From: Pirellulales bacterium
Lineage (GTDB): Bacteria; Planctomycetota; Planctomycetia; Pirellulales; JADZDJ01
Length of the DNA stretch: 32,686 nt
NCBI GenBank assembly: GCA_035656635.1
Contig: DASRSD010000006.1
Span: 1-32,686 of the forward strand
Reading direction: 5' to 3'
The position numbers and the translations under genes are program-made. The notes under the pieces are model-generated. The model was not told the DNA's origin and made no database searches. It was given only the letters and a program-made list of their open reading frames with translations. Shown here in pieces: positions 1 through 23,593 of the stretch. The first letter of the stretch is position 1. Each line of letters begins with the position of its first letter.

Positions 1-1760
1 AGCAAATTCCGTTGATCTTTGGCAAGCTGCTGTACGGCTCGAAATTTCATCGCCTGCGGATGAGTCGTGGCCAGCAAGGCATTGGCATTAGCGCCGCCGG
101 CATGTACGGCGTGCTGACCACGGGCAAGCCGGTGAAAATCATTTCCAAAATTTCGAAAAAATCGCCATCGCATTATTACGAAATTCAAATCAACACCAAA
201 AACAACAAGCCGGAAATCTTGAACGGCCGTGGCGAAGGGGTCGACATTCCCGCCGGCGAGCGGGGCAAAGCATTGATCGAAAAGCACGGCATCGAATGGG
301 TTGCCGTGCACGATGGCGACAAAGAAGTGGCCCACGGCACGCGCGTCACCATCGAGCTGGAAGGCGCCTACAAGCGCGGTCGCGGCAGTGTGGAGGAATA
401 CCTGGAGCAAACCGCCATCGCCAATCCGCACTTGCGGCTGCACTACCAAGATTCCGAAACGAACGAGCGATTATTCGAGCGCTCTACGCATCACTTGCCG
501 CCGGAGCCGAAGGAAATCAAGCCCCATCCTTATGGCGTGGAATTGGGCCGGCTGATCACGATGATGAAAGACGCGCCGGTCTGCACCATTTCGCAATTTT
601 TGACGCAAAACTTTTCACGTGTCAGCCCGAGCGTGGCCCGAAAAATTTGCGAAACGGCGAAGTTGAGCACGCGGGCCAATGTGCATCGCATTGGTCGGCA
701 TGAGGCCGATGCCATTTATCAGGCCGTTCAGCAAACGAAAATCTCGTCCCCCTCGACCGATTGCATCTCGCCCATTGGCGAAGCGCTGCTGCTGAAAGGC
801 CTGCATCAGGTGGTTCCGGGCGAATTTTACGCCGCAGCCACCCGGCCGCCGTCGGTATACCGGGGCAATCCGTTTTTAATCGAAGCCGCCGTGGCCTATG
901 GCGGCGCGCCAATTGGCCAGCGTGTGTCGTTGGAAGTGCTGGCGGAATTGCTCTCCCAAAGCGATGCCCGCACCCTGCGGCAGTTTCTCGTCAGCACGTT
1001 CGCCGGCTTGGGAAGCCAGGCGGCCGATAAAATTCTGGAAGAATCGAAGCTGGGCACGCGGCAATCACCGAGCCGGCTAAAGAAGGAAGAAAAGGCCGCC
1101 CTCCATGCCGCCATGCACAACGTGAATTTGGAAGACGGACAAACCATGACCGTCCTGCGTTATGCCAACCGCGTGCCGCTGCAATTTCAGCACGCCGCTT
1201 GCGCCATTACGCAAACCATCATGAGTACCAATTGGCGCAGCTATGGCCTGCAGCAATCGCGCAATTCGCTCCCCAGCGGGCCGATCACCATCATGGTGCA
1301 CATGGCCAGCGTGTGGGTTCCCTTCACCAGCGAATCGAAGGAAGCCATCGCCGGCTATCCGGAAATTCAAAAAGAACTTCGGCTCGCCCTGCAGGCCGTG
1401 GGACGCAAATTGGGCATGTACCTGCGCCGCCGCATCCGCGTGAAGCAAGAAGGGGAACGCCGCAACATCTTCCTCCGTTACCTGGGCGAAGTAGCCAGCG
1501 CCGTGGGCGAAATCAATCGCACGAATGTGAAATCGTTATACGAAAAGCTGCTGGCCGTGGCAAAAAAGAAAACCGCCGAAGCAGATGTCGTGCTCGGAGA
1601 AAACGGCAAACCCGTGGAAGAATCCGACGCCGAAGATTACGGCGGCAGCGTGCTGATTATCGAAAACCACGCGCCGCTTACGGCAGCCGCAAATGTGCCG
1701 GCCGCTGCGGCAATCACTAGCGAAAAGCCCGGCAGCGCTCCGCTCGCGCGTCGCGGCTAA
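1..1760 (+). CDS. top6B: DNA topoisomerase VI subunit B (5' end outside window)
   Basis: ATPase subunit of type IIB topoisomerase VI, which with subunit A relaxes and decatenates DNA by passing one duplex through a double-strand break. The frame is open from the first bases, so the true start lies upstream and the N-box and DNGxG box of the GHKL ATPase are not visible. What is visible starts with the family block IFGKLLYGSKFHRLR, then the glycine-rich ATP-lid motif SRGQQGIGISA (positions about 57-95). Next come a long helical (H2TH-like) region and the transducer domain. In the transducer, the block VHMASVWVPFTSESKEAI (about 1293-1346) contains the conserved lysine expected to contact the nucleotide. 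About 585 residues remain, so the complete protein would be longer than the archaeal enzymes of about 530 residues. The C-terminal tail is Ala-rich and probably disordered. The top6A gene follows on the same strand. Topo VI is archaeal and plant-typical and patchy in bacteria. Confidence 0.93.
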   Translation, partial: QIPLIFGKLLYGSKFHRLRMSRGQQGIGISAAGMYGVLTTGKPVKIISKISKKSPSHYYEIQINTKNNKPEILNGRGEGVDIPAGERGKALIEKHGIEWVAVHDGDKEVAHGTRVTIELEGAYKRGRGSVEEYLEQTAIANPHLRLHYQDSETNERLFERSTHHLPPEPKEIKPHPYGVELGRLITMMKDAPVCTISQFLTQNFSRVSPSVARKICETAKLSTRANVHRIGRHEADAIYQAVQQTKISSPSTDCISPIGEALLLKGLHQVVPGEFYAAATRPPSVYRGNPFLIEAAVAYGGAPIGQRVSLEVLAELLSQSDARTLRQFLVSTFAGLGSQAADKILEESKLGTRQSPSRLKKEEKAALHAAMHNVNLEDGQTMTVLRYANRVPLQFQHAACAITQTIMSTNWRSYGLQQSRNSLPSGPITIMVHMASVWVPFTSESKEAIAGYPEIQKELRLALQAVGRKLGMYLRRRIRVKQEGERRNIFLRYLGEVASAVGEINRTNVKSLYEKLLAVAKKKTAEADVVLGENGKPVEESDAEDYGGSVLIIENHAPLTAAANVPAAAAITSEKPGSAPLARRG

Positions 1761-1770
1761 ACATTCCTTC

Positions 1771-1868
1771 GCCCATCACCCACTCACCCCATCACCCACT
1801 CACCCCATCACCCGCTCACCCCATCACCCCATCACCCCATCACCCCATCACCCCATTACCCGCTCACC
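1771..1868. repeat. 8-bp tandem repeat between top6B and top6A
   Basis: About twelve consecutive 8-bp units fill the spacer between the top6B stop and the top6A start. The main word is ACCCCATC, with variants ACCCACTC, ACCCGCTC and ACCCCATT. The array is C-rich on the coding strand and ends 6 bp before the top6A ATG. No Shine-Dalgarno sequence is present in this spacer, so the repeat occupies the place of a normal ribosome binding site. Because 8 is not a multiple of 3 and the units are nearly identical, copy number could change by slippage without altering either protein. It resembles the 7-bp repeats at other gene borders in this window. Confidence 0.9.
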
Positions 1869-1874
1869 GCCACC

Positions 1875-3032
1875 ATGGCCAAACGTTCCCGCAAATCTGA
1901 TTCCAACGGTTCCGCCCAAGCCGATCCAGCCAAACTCACGCCCCGTGATAAAAAAACGCTGGGCGTGCTCAAAGACATGGCCAACAACGTGGTGGCCGCC
2001 GCGGAAAAAAAACGCGATCCATTTCTGGATATTCCGGCCCGGAACTTATCGAACGTCAAGTACAACCGGGTCAAACGGTTCATCGAAATGGGCAGCGCCA
2101 AAAACCGCCGGCAATTGTTCAATCTGTCGCAGGCCAAAAGTTACATGCAAACCATGCTGGTCGCCAGCGGCTGCAAGCGCCTGATTGAACAAACCAAAAC
2201 CACCAGTTTGCGAGGCATGTTCTACCTCCTCAAGCACACCATCGAAGGCACCAAGGAAGAAACTTTTTCCGATCAGAACGAATGCGATCCGGTGATCGAA
2301 GATTTGGAAGTCACGCTCAACAGCCTGCGCGAAGAACTGCACTTATACGCTCAAAAGCGCGGCGACATGGTGGGCCCCATTACGCTGGTCGACAGCGGCG
2401 ACGAAATCGATTGCACCCGCATGGGCTCCGGCGGCTACGGCATTCCCTCCATTGTGGAGCCGGAACGCATTGAATTCAAAAAGTGCGACGCCAAATTCAT
2501 TCTGCACGTGGAAAAAGACACCGTTTGGCAGCGCTTCAACGAAGATAAATTCTGGCGCAAGCACAAGTGCATTCTCACGCACGGCGCCGGGCAGCCCACG
2601 CGCGGAGTGCGGCGGCTGCTGTGCCGCATGCACCAGGAGTTGAAGCTGCCTATTTATTGCTTGCTGGATAACGATCCCTGGGGCTATTACATTTACAGCG
2701 TATTGAAGCAGGGCTCCATCAACCTGGCCTACGAAAGCAAGCGGATGGCCATCCCGGATGTCAAATTCATCGGACTGCGCAGCATTGATTTCGAGCGCTG
2801 CCACCTGTCCAACAGCGTAAAAATTACGCTCAACGATTCCGACATTAAACGCGCCAAGCAAATCGCCAGCTATCCTTGGTTCGCCTCCAAAAAGCAGTGG
2901 CAGAAGGAAATTGAACGGATGCTCAAAAACGGCTTCAAGCTGGAAGTGGAGTCGCTGATCTCCAAAGACATCAGCTACGTCACCGAAACTTATGTGCCCG
3001 AGCGGTTGAACGAAGAAGATTGGCTGGACTAA
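1875..3032 (+). CDS. top6A: DNA topoisomerase VI subunit A (Spo11-like)
   Basis: DNA-cleaving subunit of topoisomerase VI, 385 aa, homologous to Spo11. The winged-helix (5Y-CAP) domain holds the motif SLRGMFYLLKH, with Tyr117 as the expected nucleophile that forms the 5'-phosphotyrosine link. The Toprim domain follows, with Glu213 in HVEKD and the acidic pair Asp265 and Asp267 in LLDNDPWGYYIY expected to bind magnesium. The length is normal for the family, with an N-terminal extension rich in Lys, Arg and Ser. The gene follows top6B after 114 bp and the two are presumably co-transcribed. The ATG at 1875 has no Shine-Dalgarno sequence, but conserved sequence begins soon after and no better start exists. 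All catalytic residues are present, so the enzyme should be active if the B subunit is intact upstream. Confidence 0.95.
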   Translation: MAKRSRKSDSNGSAQADPAKLTPRDKKTLGVLKDMANNVVAAAEKKRDPFLDIPARNLSNVKYNRVKRFIEMGSAKNRRQLFNLSQAKSYMQTMLVASGCKRLIEQTKTTSLRGMFYLLKHTIEGTKEETFSDQNECDPVIEDLEVTLNSLREELHLYAQKRGDMVGPITLVDSGDEIDCTRMGSGGYGIPSIVEPERIEFKKCDAKFILHVEKDTVWQRFNEDKFWRKHKCILTHGAGQPTRGVRRLLCRMHQELKLPIYCLLDNDPWGYYIYSVLKQGSINLAYESKRMAIPDVKFIGLRSIDFERCHLSNSVKITLNDSDIKRAKQIASYPWFASKKQWQKEIERMLKNGFKLEVESLISKDISYVTETYVPERLNEEDWLD

Positions 3033-8678: not shown

Positions 8679-9965
8679 ATGACCAGCTATCCGCAATTCT
8701 TCCGCCTGCGTCAGAAATTCGAGCGGCCACACGTCGCCGACGTTGCCGGCGAAGTGCAGCGGCAATTGGCACGGCTAAACCTGGCGGAAAAAATCAGGCC
8801 GCGGCAAAGCGTGGCCATCACCGCCGGCAGCCGCGGGATTGCCAACATTGCGCACATCATTCGGGCGATCAGCCAACATTTGAAGAGCATTGGCGCTAGC
8901 CCCTTCATTGTGCCTGCCATGGGAAGCCACGGGGGCGGCACGGCCCAAGGTCAATTGCAGCTGCTGAAAGATTACGGCATTACCGAGGAGTTTTGCGGCT
9001 GCCCCATTCGCGCCAGCATGGCGACGGAAATTGTAGGTCAAGCGGCCGAAGGGTTTCCGGTGCACGTTGATCGGCACGCTTGCCAGGCAGATCATGTCAT
9101 CCTGTGCGGGCGCATCAAGCCGCACACCGATTTCACCGGCGACATTGAAAGCGGGCTGATGAAAATGATGCTGTTGGGGCTGGGCAAGCACAACGGCGCG
9201 AAAATTTATCATCGCGCGTTTCAAGATTACAGCTTCGCGCAAATTGTTCGCAGCGTGGCCGCCCAGGTGCTGCAGCGCTGCCGAATTGCCGCCGGCGTGG
9301 CGATTGTCGAAAACGCCTATGACGAAACGGCGCTGATCGAAGCCATTGCCCCGCAGGAAATCGAACATCGCGAAAAACAACTGCTGGTGCTGGCCAAAGC
9401 GTGGATGCCGCGATTGCCGTTTCGCCTGGTCGATATTTTGATCATTGACGAAATGGGAAAAAACATCAGCGGGGCCGGCATCGACACCAACGTGGTCGGC
9501 CGCAAGCAAAGCGCTAATAAGGCCGGCGACGGCGAGTTCCCCAAAGTGCGGCGAATCATTGTCCGCAGCTTAACGCCCGCTTCGCATGGCAATGCGGTGG
9601 GCATTGGCATGGTGGAATTTTGCACCACGCGGTTGCTCCAGCAGCACGACCGGCACGCCACGTGGACCAACATTTTAACGAGCGGCAACCTGGGAATGGT
9701 GAAATATCCGCTGCATTACGATACCGACCGCCAACTGCTGGATGCGGCCCTGCCGACCATTGGCCTCACGGAACCCGCCAACGCGAAGATGCTGTGGATT
9801 AAAAACACACTGCACTTGGCCGAAGTGGAATGCTCGGCCGCGTATTTGCCCGAAGCCCGCACGCGCAGCGATTTAGAAATTCTCACGCCGCTGCGCGATC
9901 TGCCGCTGGATGCCGCCGGAAATTTACCGGTGTTTGAAGCGGAGATTCCTGCCGCCGTGCACTAA
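8679..9965 (+). CDS. LarA-like (lactate racemase-fold, DUF2088) protein
   Basis: A 428-aa protein of the LarA/DUF2088 superfamily. LarA, the founding member, is a lactate racemase that uses a nickel-pincer nucleotide cofactor; many family members act on other 2-hydroxy acids or are uncharacterised. Supporting motifs in order are AITAGSRGIAN near the N-terminus, VPAMGSHGGGTAQGQ, CGRIKPHTDFTGDIESGLMKM and LGLGKHNGAKIYH. These hold the His and Lys cluster expected around the cofactor. I prefer ATG 8679 (MTSYPQFFRL) because upstream residues run into repeat-derived sequence. No larB, larC or larE is nearby, so cofactor supply would have to be encoded elsewhere. The gene is convergent with the BBP7 gene, only 12 bp apart. 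The substrate is unknown. Confidence 0.75.
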   Translation: MTSYPQFFRLRQKFERPHVADVAGEVQRQLARLNLAEKIRPRQSVAITAGSRGIANIAHIIRAISQHLKSIGASPFIVPAMGSHGGGTAQGQLQLLKDYGITEEFCGCPIRASMATEIVGQAAEGFPVHVDRHACQADHVILCGRIKPHTDFTGDIESGLMKMMLLGLGKHNGAKIYHRAFQDYSFAQIVRSVAAQVLQRCRIAAGVAIVENAYDETALIEAIAPQEIEHREKQLLVLAKAWMPRLPFRLVDILIIDEMGKNISGAGIDTNVVGRKQSANKAGDGEFPKVRRIIVRSLTPASHGNAVGIGMVEFCTTRLLQQHDRHATWTNILTSGNLGMVKYPLHYDTDRQLLDAALPTIGLTEPANAKMLWIKNTLHLAEVECSAAYLPEARTRSDLEILTPLRDLPLDAAGNLPVFEAEIPAAVH

Positions 9966-20130: not shown

Positions 20131-20862
20131 ATGGCACTGGCTCCCCTCGTCCAACTTGCCCGTGAAATGCTCCGCGGCGAAAACCGTCGGGCCTCCATCA
20201 TTGTGCTGACCAGCGCCGCGTGTTTGACCGCTTGGCAGTTGACGGGAAATTACAATTTTTGGCTGGCCCATTTGTCGGGCTGGATGGCATTGGGCGTGGA
20301 GCCCAAAATCGCCGCTGGAATTTGGTGGCTGGCCGATAGCGTGCTGTGGCTGGGATTCATCCCGGTGTTTGTCGTCAAAGTGGTGCTCCGCGAACGACTG
20401 AACGAATACGGCATTCGCTTGGGAGACCTGCATTTTGCTGCAGTGTGTTGCCTGCTGGTTGCACCGCTGGTAGTGGCCATTGGATATTTTTCGGCCCAAT
20501 CTCCCGCCTTTCAGGCAATTTATCCGCTCGATCCTGTGGCCCGGCAATCGCCCACGGCGTTAGCCTGGCATTTAGCCGGCCAGTTGCTGTGGTACGCCGC
20601 CTGGGAATTTCATTTCCGCGGCTTCTTACAGTTCGGACTGGAAAAATCGTACGGAATTTCGCTGGGCATTTGGATTCAAGCCCTGGCCAGCACGCTAGCG
20701 CATTTCGGCAGGCCCGGCACGGAGGTTTTCGCTTCCATTCTTGCCGGGCTGCTATGGGGCGCTTTGGCTTGGCGCACGCGCTCCTTGCTGGCCGGCTTCG
20801 CCCAACACTGGCTGCTGGGCGCGAGCTTGGATTTTTGCCTGTGTCGGGCGGCATCCGGTTAG
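20131..20862 (+). CDS. CPBP-family intramembrane metalloprotease-like protein
   Basis: A 243-aa polytopic membrane protein. The conserved core is AWEFHFRG (the ExxxR motif of the CAAX-protease/bacteriocin-processing family), then LASTLAHFGRP (FxxxH-like, with the metal-binding His), then FAQHWLLGASLDF near the C-terminus (last His motif). Hydrophobic segments such as FAAVCCLLVAPLVVAIGYF support several membrane helices. Family members cleave peptides or process prenylated proteins or bacteriocins, and some are immunity proteins; the substrate here is unknown. The first glutamate of the usual EE pair is Trp here (WEFHFR), a small deviation. The stop codon overlaps the convergent kinase-like gene in TTAG. 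Confidence 0.72.
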   Translation: MALAPLVQLAREMLRGENRRASIIVLTSAACLTAWQLTGNYNFWLAHLSGWMALGVEPKIAAGIWWLADSVLWLGFIPVFVVKVVLRERLNEYGIRLGDLHFAAVCCLLVAPLVVAIGYFSAQSPAFQAIYPLDPVARQSPTALAWHLAGQLLWYAAWEFHFRGFLQFGLEKSYGISLGIWIQALASTLAHFGRPGTEVFASILAGLLWGALAWRTRSLLAGFAQHWLLGASLDFCLCRAASG

Positions 20863-21374
20863 AAATCCGGTTCAGCTTCTTCATCAAATTCTGGAAGACG
20901 GATATTCCCGCGGTTAATATCAATGTAATAGATGCCCATCGACCGAAGTTTTGCGAGGATCAAACTGACACGTGGCCAATGAGTGCCGAATAACTCCCTA
21001 TTGTTCTGATGCTGCTCGGCTAATGCTTCTGCCGGAAAGTCCGGCGGCCTATCAAGATACGCCCCGGCAAAATCCAGAATATAAGGCGGCCTTACCAGGC
21101 TGATCTCGATCACTCTTAATTCATCGTCCCAAGCCAATAATTGCGGAACTTCAAATTCATTGATGCGATCCACTTCCAGTTCAGCTAATCTTGCATAAAC
21201 AACCCATTCTCGTTCATACTCCATTTGGCGATCAAACACTTTAACCGCCGAGAGCCGCGTTGAAGACCACACCTGTCCATTAACGCCGCTGCCCAGCGTC
21301 TTAACCAACTCGATATTTCGGCTTTGGGCGAATTGATGCGCACGCTCGGCTGCAGAGGAAAATGGTGCTGACAT
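20859..21374 (-). CDS. Miniature kinase-like protein (unknown function)
   Basis: A 171-aa protein with the outline of a protein kinase-like fold in reduced form. Residues 28-36 (GSGVNGQVW) look like the glycine-rich loop, Lys45 in SAVKVF like the ATP-binding lysine, and Glu54 or Glu56 in YEREW like its helix-C partner. IDINRGNI (151-158) looks like the catalytic loop, with Asp152 and Asn157. The central part has PPYILDFAGAYLDRPPDFP. It ends 13 residues after the catalytic loop, with no DFG motif and no C-lobe, so it is far shorter than a normal kinase of about 270 residues. The start is supported by AGGTGA upstream. Its start codon overlaps that of the 89-aa gene on the other strand. It may be a kinase relative that binds nucleotide or has lost activity. 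Confidence 0.7.
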   Translation of the reverse strand: MSAPFSSAAERAHQFAQSRNIELVKTLGSGVNGQVWSSTRLSAVKVFDRQMEYEREWVVYARLAELEVDRINEFEVPQLLAWDDELRVIEISLVRPPYILDFAGAYLDRPPDFPAEALAEQHQNNRELFGTHWPRVSLILAKLRSMGIYYIDINRGNIRLPEFDEEAEPDF

Positions 21375-21642
21375 GCGATTATCACCTGCCCCCGTCGGTC
21401 ATTCTGCCCGGGTTCGTTTGAGCCTGCGCGCATCTGGCCACGTCGTGCCATTATCTCAGGTTGGTCCGGACTTTTGCATTTCGCGAGAGCCGGTCGAACT
21501 CTTACCTCAAAAAGCCGAAATCGTTGTGCAAATCGACGGCGAAGACCACGTTTACCCAGTGTATCTACCCAAAGGCATGTCTGCCGCGTCTCAGAAATCG
21601 ATGATTGAACTGCTATCCAACGCGCCTATTGTTGCGAGCTGA
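21373..21642 (+). CDS. 89-aa protein of unknown function, divergent partner of the kinase-like gene
   Basis: The protein has an apparent beta-rich pattern: VRLSLRASGHVVPLSQVGPDF, then EIVVQIDGEDHVYPVYLPKGM. No signal peptide, metal site or DNA-binding motif is seen. I do not recognise a named family. Its ATG shares bases with the start codon of the minus-strand kinase-like gene (CATG at 21372-21375), so each gene's promoter and ribosome site must lie inside the other's coding sequence. That arrangement, and the small size of both, suggest a linked two-gene unit, but the function is unknown. The start could be slightly downstream if TTG is used. Confidence 0.6.
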   Translation: MRLSPAPVGHSARVRLSLRASGHVVPLSQVGPDFCISREPVELLPQKAEIVVQIDGEDHVYPVYLPKGMSAASQKSMIELLSNAPIVAS

Positions 21643-21689
21643 TTAGTGCTTCCAAAAGTACGACGATTGTAAGTGCCGCAATCGTGAAG

Positions 21690-23264
21690 CTACAGCGCCG
21701 CGGCGCTTTCGTACGTCCGGCCGCCGCCGGCACAATCTGCCTGTTGCAAGGCAATTTGATAGAGTTTTTGCCCGTACGGCGTGGGGTACTCGCCGGTAAT
21801 GCAGGCCTGGCAAAGCTGATCGGAATCGAACCCAATGGCCCGGGCGATCGATTCCACCGGCAAATAGCGGAGCGAATCGGCCCCCAACCGTTGGGCCATG
21901 GCGGCTTCAGCTTCTTCCGTCAATTGACCGTCTCGCAAAAACGGCGGGGCAAATAGTTCGCCAATCGTCGACATGTCGATGCCATAAAAACAGGGCGCAA
22001 TAATCGGCGGGCAAGCGACCCGCACGTGAATTTCGCGTGCTCCGCCCATTTCTCGCAGGCGATGAATCAGCACCTTCATGGTCGTGGAGCGGACAATGGA
22101 ATCTTCGACCAAAATCACACGCTTGCCTTCCAAAACTTCCCGCAGCGGCGTGTATTTGGTTTCGGCCTTTTGCCGCCGGCTGTTTCCTCCTTCGATAAAC
22201 GTGCGGCCGGTGTAGCGATTGCGAATTAGCCCCTCCACGGCCGGCACGCGCAACCCATAGGCCATGGCATCGGCCGCCGCTTTGCTAGTATCGGGCACGG
22301 GCACCACGACGGTGTCTTTGTCGATTTTCAGCGTTTCCAGGCGCGCTAATTCTTCGCCCAAATGCTTGCGCGTTAAATACACGCTGCGCTCGTCCATCGT
22401 GCTGGCCACGTTGGCAAAATAAATCCATTCGAAAAAGCAATGTGCCTTGCGCGGCTGCCGGGCAAAGGTGTGCAACTCGAACCGTGACGGCGAAATGGAA
22501 ATCATTTGCCCGGGCAACAACGATTTGATGCTTTCCGCCTGAAAGCCCAAATTCAACAATGCCACGCTTTCACTGGCCGCGGCAAATAGCGGGCCTTCCT
22601 TGGCGTAACATAGCGGACGGATTCCCAGCGGATCGCGCACCACCACCATTTCCCCCACAGCGTTTAAGAACACCAGGTTGTACGCCCCGTCAAACCGCCG
22701 CGCTACGTTGCGAAACACATCGACCAAGTCGGGCTGCCCGTCGCCGGAAAGCTCCCGGCTGATTTCGTGCATGATAATTTCGGTGTCGTTCTCGCGGGCC
22801 AAGTGATTATCGCCATCGGCCAGCAGTTTGGCCTGCAATTCGCGAAAGTTGGCCAACTGCCCGTTGAAGCCAAAGCTGAACCATTTGTGCCGCTGCAAAT
22901 GATGCCGCTCGAACGGCTGGGCGTAATTGCGGTCGTCTTCCCCGCAAGTGGCGTAGCGCACGTGTCCAATGGCCGCCCGACCGGCGTATTGGCTCATCAA
23001 GCTTTCGTACTTGCCTCGGTGGCTCATGCGGAACACTTCGCTGACGCTGCCCACGTCTTTGTGCGTTTCTAGAAGCTGCCGGCGATCGGGGTCGTACGTG
23101 GTCATGCCCGCGGAAAGCTGGCCCCGGTTTTGAATATCCAAGAGCATCCGCGGCATTAACCGAGAGATTTCACCCGGACCCTGCGCCGGGCACAAGGGAC
23201 TGGAAGCCGCGGCTGGCAAGTGATAGATCGCCGCCAAACCACATTCATGATGCAATTCGCTCAT
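21690..23264 (-). CDS. purF: Amidophosphoribosyltransferase (PurF), Fe-S type
   Basis: First enzyme of purine synthesis: transfers ammonia from glutamine to PRPP. ATG 23264 is chosen because the glutaminase nucleophile then falls at Cys8 ([12 protein letters not shown]); the longer frame to 23327 adds 21 residues with no family match. The glutaminase domain also has [24 protein letters not shown] and the Asp of NDTEIIMH. The phosphoribosyl domain has [17 protein letters not shown] and the PRPP loop EDSIVRSTT. Cysteines in [24 protein letters not shown] and LCQACITG match the four 4Fe-4S ligands of the Bacillus-type enzyme. Some signature positions deviate (usual RGQESAG and GHNGNL), so this may be a divergent or second PurF of the lineage. 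It is divergent from proB. Confidence 0.88.
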
Positions 23265-23593
23265 GGCACCCCGGGGATGAAAACGTAGGAAAGATGAATC
23301 AAGGGCTGGCGAAAAATTCGTGGGCACTGCATTGTACGGCTGCGAACGTGTTTGCTCAACAACGTGTCAAAACCACTCAAATCGGCCGTTAATTGCGTCA
23401 GTCTTTCTGCTTCCGTATAGGAACGGTATGTTATCGTGGCAGTTACTTCGATGTTCAATTTGACTCCAGCTTTTCCTCACTGGCCAGTGCGACCACCCAC
23501 CGACTCCTGATTCTTGAACCCTGATCACAACTCCGGTTTCTCCACTAACTTCTCCCCCTAACCACTAATCACTAGCCACTAGCCACTTCCCCC
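23265..23593. other. Divergent gene-free region between purF and proB
   Basis: This 329-bp region must hold the promoters of both genes. Its right end is a 7-bp tandem repeat touching the proB start. No purine-type operator or confident promoter could be assigned. Confidence 0.45.
23559..23586. repeat. 7-bp tandem repeat immediately upstream of proB
   Basis: Four consecutive heptamers: TAACCAC, TAATCAC, TAGCCAC, TAGCCAC. A fifth degenerate heptamer, TTCCCCC (23587-23593), ends exactly at the proB ATG. No Shine-Dalgarno sequence is present, so the repeat takes up the ribosome-site position as in the top6A spacer. Confidence 0.8.

What the first reader, a model, noticed from the sequence alone, without database searches (positions are those of the whole stretch)
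20859..21642. Miniature kinase-like gene and 89-aa gene with overlapping divergent start codons
The 171-aa protein has glycine loop, lysine, helix-C acid and catalytic-loop residues but stops before the DFG region. The small partner starts on the opposite strand inside the same CATG. Divergent genes that share start-codon bases force each promoter into the other gene, which usually keeps a pair together and co-regulated. Both proteins look like orderly, conserved small proteins of no named function.
Basis: partly seen in the sequence, partly recalled or inferred. Interest (0 to 1): 0.62.

Follow-up and report, generated by a model that had tools for sequence, protein, structure and literature searches.

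The report
Tiny kinase paired with PilZ-like protein
A very small kinase-like gene and an even smaller partner gene face away from each other and share the same four start-codon bases, a pairing kept across two bacterial phyla and often found at the control end of CRISPR-Cas immune systems, although this bacterium's copy stands alone.

Summary
K (171 aa, 20859-21374, minus) and S (89 aa, 21373-21642, plus) share CATG 21372-21375. The layout is conserved: S sits divergently beside K in 38 of 41 related loci; start codons share CATG in 34 of 39 pairs and 10 of 12 further ones. In 392 genomes of the phylum K and S each occur in 13, 12 in common.

K does not simply lack its DFG. The family ends after the catalytic loop, but an invariant DFA within 'VLDFAGAYLD' precedes helix E; profile tests and predicted strands suggest a permuted DFG. 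S resembles a PilZ barrel without the c-di-GMP motifs.

In relatives the pair heads CRISPR-Cas loci on 16 of 41 contigs, often with a crRNA-like mini-array whose spacer matches a site before the first cas gene. The window copy has no cas genes nearby and its genome no Cas1 match.

Best guess: a toxin-antitoxin-like kinase/antidote pair that CRISPR-Cas loci recruit. Function is untested.

The parts
20859..21374 (-). K: minimal kinase-like protein, 171 aa
   Evidence: PADLOC ST_Kinase E 4.9e-42; AlphaFold2 mean pLDDT 93.2
21373..21642 (+). S: small PilZ-like barrel protein, 89 aa
   Evidence: mean pLDDT 87.5; best PDB matches are PilZ domains
21372..21375 (.). CATG: overlapping start codons of K and S
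   Evidence: shared in 34 of 39 pairs and 10 of 12 further ones
21276..21293 (-). K glycine-rich loop GSGVNG (residues 28-33)
   Evidence: G28 and G30 invariant in 31 sequences
21240..21242 (-). K ATP-site lysine K45
   Evidence: invariant in 31 sequences
21207..21209 (-). K helix-C glutamate E56
   Evidence: invariant in 31 sequences
21042..21092 (-). K residues 95-111 RPPYILDFAGAYLDRPP: proposed permuted beta8-DFG-beta9, D101 as the metal-binding Asp
   Evidence: P97, D101, F102, A103, D108, P111 invariant; strands 98-99 and 105-107; un-permutation tests
20904..20921 (-). K catalytic loop DINRGN (residues 152-157)
   Evidence: D152 and N157 invariant in 31 sequences

Best explanation
K and S form a self-contained two-gene module. 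K is a minimal ATP-binding kinase of about 160 residues whose DFG segment is moved to between hinge and helix E. S is a small PilZ-like barrel that most likely binds and restrains K. The pair behaves like a toxin-antitoxin cassette: K is the growth-arresting or effector kinase, S the antidote, and the shared CATG ties both start sites together so that neither can move alone. CRISPR-Cas loci (mainly type I-G) recruit the cassette into their control region, between a crRNA-like RNA gene and the stretch before the first cas gene, where it may guard the system or act when it fails. The window copy is an orphan in a genome without a Cas1 match. SHOWN: both genes, their conserved pairing and start sharing, the folds as predictions, the genomic association with cas genes. 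INFERRED: permuted DFG (indirect evidence), K-S binding, K toxicity, any guarding role.
For: Pair: (Fisher p 7e-21). G28, G30, K45, E56, D101, D152, N157 invariant in 31 of 31, cas-linked or not. PDB fold matches to APH(2''), RIO-type and receptor kinases. Un-permuted K: hhalign score 72.7 against 60.3 native, 0 of 100 column shuffles as high; PDB profile best E 1e-05 and 330 hits, against 0.0012 and 149 native and 0.0002 and 130 shuffled. S to PilZ. Cas genes on 16 of 41 contigs, on S's side and strand in 16 of 16. Decay asymmetry among 62 stretches: in 13 S is uninterrupted while K is broken or absent; the reverse only in L021, where K is also 5'-truncated (scored by hand; p 0.0045 for 13 of 13, 0.024 for 13 of 14 against gene length). 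Patchy: 13 of 392 genomes.
Against: No toxicity or binding data; no complex could be predicted. Divergent orientation is unusual for toxin-antitoxin pairs (recalled). No match on plasmids, phages or viral contigs, so no sign of present mobility. 0 of 14 K-bearing stretches of the phylum survey (L142 repeats L004) has a cas gene, only a WYL-like hit in L145. The crRNA-like spacers match a site before the cas genes, not the K promoter. Some broken K copies may be assembly errors or related strains; L145, whose S match is weak (E 1e-3, positions 20-67), was counted as intact. S without K at a type I-G locus (L148) suggests that S may have a cas-linked role of its own. Two controls do not favour the permuted DFG (see the pseudokinase rival).
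Confidence: 0.42

Rival explanations
1. K and S are regulators of cas expression: K phosphorylates S or a cas regulator, and S, ahead of the cas genes on their strand, helps set cas transcription. Orphan copies have been rewired.
For: In relatives the pair lies between a crRNA-like element after K and a matching site before the first cas gene; S reads toward the cas genes; WYL-domain genes nearby in L011, L016 and L148; S kept without K at a type I-G locus (L148).
Against: Persists with invariant catalytic residues in loci without cas genes and in a genome without Cas1; linked to at least three kinds of Cas effector; the S model's best matches are PilZ domains.
Confidence: 0.22
2. An autonomous signalling or anti-phage pair (kinase effector with sensor barrel) that co-locates with CRISPR-Cas only as part of defence islands.
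For: Association with several Cas effectors and a type IIG restriction-methylase-like gene in L012; patchy distribution; orphans.
Against: In 16 of 16 cas-linked contigs the cas gene lies on S's side and strand, tighter than loose island clustering.
Confidence: 0.22
3. K is a pseudokinase lacking the metal-binding Asp; 'VLDFAGAYLD' is only a hinge and alpha-D feature, and K acts by binding.
For: The segment sits where hinge and alpha-D usually lie. Single-sequence gains are small (mean 7.1 to 10.4 bits, shuffles 8.0) and beat all 30 shuffles in 18 of 31 members; a copy of the segment appended at the end beat all other transplanted windows in only 13 of 31 (mean 9.7 against mean best 9.8); in the window's own K the gain is 0.2 bits and the segment is not aligned. 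The best of 100 column shuffles came close (72.3 against 72.7).
Against: Profile searches and strand lengths favour the permuted DFG; D152 and N157 are invariant.
Confidence: 0.22
4. The S reading frame is not a gene but an antisense shadow of the K upstream region.
For: Short; no Pfam or NCBIfam match for this protein.
Against: Conserved as protein over two phyla, confident barrel model, found without K (L148, L149).
Confidence: 0.01

Closest known systems
PADLOC PDLC01137 'ST_Kinase' (described as next to type I-C systems in Rhodopirellula)
   Same: K is a member by profile (E 4.9e-42, residues 10-159 of 171, profile 7-161 of 162); a CRISPR neighbourhood is already noted in the model's description
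   Different: The description printed by the tool does not mention S, the shared start codons, a permuted DFG or the crRNA-like element; links seen here include I-G, Cas3b and V-B (Cas12b) loci
APH(2'') and RIO-type kinases (protein-kinase-like fold)
   Same: Predicted N-lobe, helix E and catalytic loop superpose (Z 7.4-8.7, 123-131 residues)
   Different: K ends after the catalytic loop; its DFG-like segment precedes helix E; no activation segment or lower C-lobe
PilZ domains (BcsA, Alg44, VCA0042)
   Same: The S model matches them best (Z 9.0 to about 6; the first 15 rows are PilZ proteins as far as I recognise them; unrelated barrels such as HCV protease follow at 5.8)
   Different: [DN]xSxxG in 0 of 30 and RxxxR near the N-terminus in 5 of 30, so c-di-GMP binding is not expected
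CreR / CreTA / CrePA crRNA-like regulators (review PMC12737573, passages read)
   Same: Repeat-like mini-array beside the cas operon with partial complementarity to a site before the cas genes, as described for CreR
   Different: Here it usually follows a protein-coding kinase gene; the spacer does not match the K promoter, so it is not CreTA or CrePA as described

Membership tests
PADLOC ST_Kinase PDLC01137 | profile match over the model | tested here: met
   E 4.9e-42, model positions 7-161 of 162
Protein-kinase-like fold | glycine loop, Lys, helix-C Glu, catalytic Asp and Asn | tested here: met
   G28, G30, K45, E56, D152, N157 invariant in 31 of 31
Protein-kinase-like fold | DFG metal-binding Asp after the catalytic loop | tested here: not met
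   Sequence ends after the catalytic loop; an equivalent in permuted position is proposed, so K is described as kinase-like, not filed as a canonical protein kinase
Protein-kinase-like fold | phosphotransfer activity | not testable with these tools
   needs an assay
PilZ | six-stranded barrel fold | tested here: met
   Prediction only: six strands; best PDB matches are PilZ domains, Z 9.0 with rmsd 9.2 over 84 and 8.3 with rmsd 2.5 over 73 residues; Foldseek E only 0.03
PilZ | RxxxR and [DN]xSxxG c-di-GMP motifs (recalled) | tested here: not met
   [DN]xSxxG 0 of 30, RxxxR in the first 30 residues 5 of 30; so 'PilZ-like', not a c-di-GMP-binding PilZ
Type II toxin-antitoxin | toxin arrests growth, antitoxin neutralises it by binding | not testable with these tools
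   decay asymmetry only
Type II toxin-antitoxin | co-directional operon (recalled as typical) | tested here: not met
   divergent in each pair found
CreTA / CrePA | crRNA-like spacer complementary to the toxin promoter | tested here: not met
   where a match above shuffles exists it lies before the first cas gene; window has no repeat tag near the pair
CreR | crRNA-like element with partial complementarity to the cas promoter region | tested here: met
   8 of 10 elements tested in relatives; that the site is the promoter is inferred from position; absent from the window

The most novel reading that the evidence does not exclude
K is a natural circularly permuted minimal kinase (DFG segment before helix E) acting as the toxin or effector of a start-codon-sharing pair with the PilZ-like antidote S, and this protein cassette is built into the control region of type I-G CRISPR-Cas, transcribed together with a CreR-like RNA, so that immunity, its autorepression and a kinase death switch are wired through one CATG.
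Probability: 0.25. Interest if true: 0.88.

Novelty: new variant of a known kind. Interest (0 to 1): 0.7.

Why it matters
In a published survey only 457 of 42,055 overlaps between well-characterised genes were divergent, and none of the divergent overlaps over 60 bp was judged real (PMC2478687, passages read; it does not judge 4-bp overlaps). Here a 4-bp head-to-head start overlap is kept across loci labelled Planctomycetota and Verrucomicrobiota, so initiation from shared bases can be tested directly. If the DFG is permuted, K would be, to my knowledge, among the smallest complete kinase active sites. The link to CRISPR-Cas control regions makes guarding, or a backup kinase response, experimentally testable.

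Tried and rejected
Pfam and NCBIfam gave no significant family for either window protein (only FTA2 at E 0.026 for K). Plasmids, phages and viral contigs: no K relative. Papers: 10 searches; searches returned nothing; the listings shown held no title on this pair or on a permuted kinase. The library is partial, and I cannot say that it is unpublished. I read passages of PMC1079889, PMC2478687, PMC2716372 and PMC12737573, no whole paper.

Split-kinase idea (S supplying the DFG through its GPDF): dropped, since that motif is not conserved throughout S and K has a DFAG of its own. CreTA reading (crRNA-like RNA repressing K): dropped, spacers match a site before the cas genes. Second spacers gave no clear match (L014 31, L019 37, L027 27, L030 29, L015 8, L020 5 of 40 shuffles as good). 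The first spacer scoring (12-nt seed) found nothing significant in L153, L148 or L162, and for L162 I had read the wrong flank. The later scoring (first 17 nt without position 6) was chosen after seeing the L153/L008 match, so L008 and L148 are not independent of that choice; one of the two L148 spacers was tested only by the first scoring. L007 and L015 have tags but no match above shuffles (38 and 15 of 60). Single tags in L010, L037, L038 and L041 were taken as chance. Cas1 at genome level is not clearly linked to K (7 of 13 K genomes against 135 of 392). No sigma-70 promoter or terminator pattern in window 20850-21900; other promoter types are not covered. Shine-Dalgarno-like motifs upstream in 11 (K) and 12 (S) of 36.

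Mended on checking: survey stretches with K are 14, not 13; one search failed and is no evidence; the transplant control is now told; the odds of the pseudokinase rival rose from 0.20 to 0.22 for it.

Full report
Observation. ORF listing and sequence confirm K (20859-21374, minus, 171 aa) and S (21373-21642, plus, 89 aa) with start codons inside one CATG at 21372-21375. K's stop codon also overlaps the stop codon of the convergent neighbour (20131-20862). Beyond S, on the other strand, lies an ORF at 21690-23327 that I recognise from memory as amidophosphoribosyltransferase (no call).

A conserved pair. A scan of species genomes with K gave 41 loci, labelled Planctomycetota, Verrucomicrobiota or just 'bacterium' and the like. 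With profiles built from them, S lies divergently next to K in 38 of 41 (none in L021, L039, L041). The distance between the two conserved domains is nearly always 1 modulo 3, as expected if the frames are locked by a shared ATG. Start codons share CATG in 34 of 39 pairs with a K 5' end, the window and the second own-genome copy included. The exceptions are L004, L011, L026, one of the two pairs in L027, and L031. In 13 survey stretches and one further contig, 11 of 14 share CATG, 10 of 12 after removing L135 and L142, which repeat L043 and L004. The own genome has a second pair on contig 43. Over 392 genomes drawn from the phylum, K occurs in 13 and S in 13, 12 in common; Fisher p is 7e-21. 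The K-only genome (G339) holds K fragments (L150). K and S distances correlate over 30 pairs (Mantel r 0.66, 0 of 5000 permutations); this shows co-inheritance, not binding.

K. PADLOC names the family ST_Kinase with a model of 162 positions, so K is not truncated: the family ends right after the catalytic loop. In 31 aligned members G28, G30, K45, E56, P97, D101, F102, A103, D108, W133, D152 and N157 are among the invariant columns. AlphaFold2 gives pLDDT 93.2. The 50 PDB rows shown are kinases or ribosomal particles with a kinase chain: APH(2''), RIO-type, TGF-beta and activin receptor kinases, Z 7.4-8.7, the APH(2'') and RIO-type rows aligned to model residue 163-166. The tool warns that Z near 8 can be a common arrangement.

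Permuted DFG. The predicted strands 98-99 and 105-107 bracket D101-F102-A103-G104 and equal in length the strands 158-159 and 148-150 that flank the catalytic loop, which fits the beta8-DFG-beta9 against beta7 and beta6 pattern of kinases (recalled; the tool gives no strand partners). I moved residues 95-111 behind the catalytic loop and rescored. Against 18 Hanks kinases of the same genome, full-sequence bits rose in 31 of 31 members (mean 7.1 to 10.4; deletion 7.8; shuffles 8.0) and beat all 30 shuffles in 18 of 31. Against this reading: a copy of the segment appended behind intact K beat all other transplanted windows in only 13 of 31, and in the window's own K the gain is 0.2 bits without the segment being aligned. 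Profile-profile score was 60.3 native, 63.3 with the segment deleted, 72.7 un-permuted, 63.0 with the segment reversed; 100 column shuffles had mean 64.3 and maximum 72.3, none reaching 72.7; 44 other windows reached at most 68.4. Against PDB sequences, with 16 of the 31 members: un-permuted best E 1e-05 and 330 hits at E<=1; native 0.0012 and 149 (0.0016 and 131 with all 31); one shuffled control 0.0002 and 130. The alignment places VLDFAGA on the DFG of HIPK2. I could not inspect coordinates, so this stays an inference, at about 0.65.

S. AlphaFold2 pLDDT is 87.5. The best PDB matches are PilZ domains: Bcs cellulose-synthase entries at Z 9.0 (84 residues, rmsd 9.2) and 8.3 (73 residues, rmsd 2.5), then VCA0042 and Alg44 near 7; unrelated barrels follow at 5.8. 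Foldseek alone is weak (E 0.03). The c-di-GMP motifs are absent or rare ([DN]xSxxG in 0 of 30, RxxxR near the N-terminus in 5 of 30).

CRISPR-Cas context in relatives. Neighbour clustering and PADLOC scans of 19 chosen neighbours showed cas genes beside the pair. A tblastn count with 13 query proteins gives 16 of the 41 contigs: L006, L007, L008, L011, L014, L016, L019, L020, L022, L024, L026, L027, L030, L031, L032, L037; the cas gene lies on S's side and strand in each. Most look like type I-G; L006 and L011 have Cas3b, which I read as type I-B; L022 has Cas12b and Cas4-Cas1. Longer stretches show operons with Cas3g, Cas7g, Cas5-6g, Cas4-1, Cas2 and an array, headed by the pair: L153, L156, L160, L162 (K broken) and L163, with a Cas8g match in L153, L162 and L163. 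Of 14 K-bearing stretches of the phylum survey (L142 repeats L004) none has a cas gene within the 15.7-20 kb held (L145 has a WYL-like hit), so the association is frequent but not general, and the two samples differ. The survey S at L148 lacks K but heads a type I-G locus with a 16-repeat array.

crRNA-like element. The repeat tag GGCCCCATTGAAGC (up to 2 mismatches) lies on K's strand soon after K in L007, L008, L014, L015, L019, L020, L027 and L030, in 6 of these 8 as a pair 71-104 bp apart; in L032 and L148 it lies beyond S. That is 9 of the 17 cas-linked loci (L148 included) and L015; background is 22 hits in 532 kb, L148's own array included. In L148 the element matches the local repeat in 29 of 36 positions, next best elsewhere 21; in L153 26 against 20. 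In L156, L160 and L164 no such copy stands out with the local repeat, in L162 it is weak (20 of 36), and in L163 the best match (23) reads as a hairpin. The spacer after the tag matches, over the first 17 nt without position 6, a site between S and the first cas gene in L008 (14 of 16), L014 (13), L019 (15), L020 (16), L027 (16), L030 (15), L032 (13) and L148 (14): 8 of 10 elements tested, with shuffles as good in 0-2 of 40-100. L007 and L015 gave no match. TTC, TTT or TTA precedes each site. This is what a review describes for CreR (PMC12737573, passages read). That the site is the cas promoter is inferred from position.

Decay. Reading through stops in 62 stretches (scored by hand), S is uninterrupted while K is broken or absent in 13 (L002, L010, L019, L030, L031, L032, L038, L143, L144, L148, L149, L164, L166). 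The reverse is seen only in L021, where K is also 5'-truncated. L165 was dropped (contig end); L008 and L018 were scored intact because the stop is terminal; L145, with a weak S match, was scored intact; L035, L039, L041, L150 and the second K of L026 are damaged on both sides or lack S. Against gene length p is 0.0045 or 0.024. Related strains and assembly errors weaken this.

Window copy. No cas hit in the 32.7-kb window, no repeat tag within 1.2 kb of the pair, and no Cas1 match in the genome (95.6% complete). Active-site residues are intact, so it is probably functional.

Verdict. A real, conserved and unusual gene pair. The kinase-like fold, PilZ-like fold and cas association are supported; the permuted DFG is likely but unproven; a toxin-antitoxin-like role is my best guess at 0.42, with regulation of cas genes and an independent defence role as rivals.

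Noticed in passing
L148 (G373:C1:1206001-1226000), 9589-9697: Degenerate type I-G repeats 73 bp apart between S and cas3, opposite strand, with a spacer matching a site just before cas3: a CreR-like element in an I-G locus that has S but no K.
   Followed up: partly
L022 / L157: A K-S pair heads a type V-B locus (Cas12b) with Cas4-Cas1 and Cas2 on the other side of K.
   Followed up: no
L015, 5505 and 5591: K-S with the crRNA-like element but no cas genes and no spacer match on the 10.4 kb held; looks like a locus that lost its CRISPR-Cas operon.
   Followed up: no
window 20859-20862: K's stop codon overlaps the stop codon of the convergent gene 20131-20862, so K overlaps a neighbour at both ends.
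   Followed up: no
window 12-3032: Two adjacent ORFs (582 and 385 aa) look to me, from memory, like topoisomerase VI subunits B and A, unexpected in a bacterium of this kind.
   Followed up: no
L012:3-2639: Type IIG restriction-methylase-like gene (PADLOC) beyond S on its strand.
   Followed up: no
L026, 4327-5360: A second, N-terminally truncated K without its own S directly follows an intact pair at a type I-G locus.
   Followed up: no
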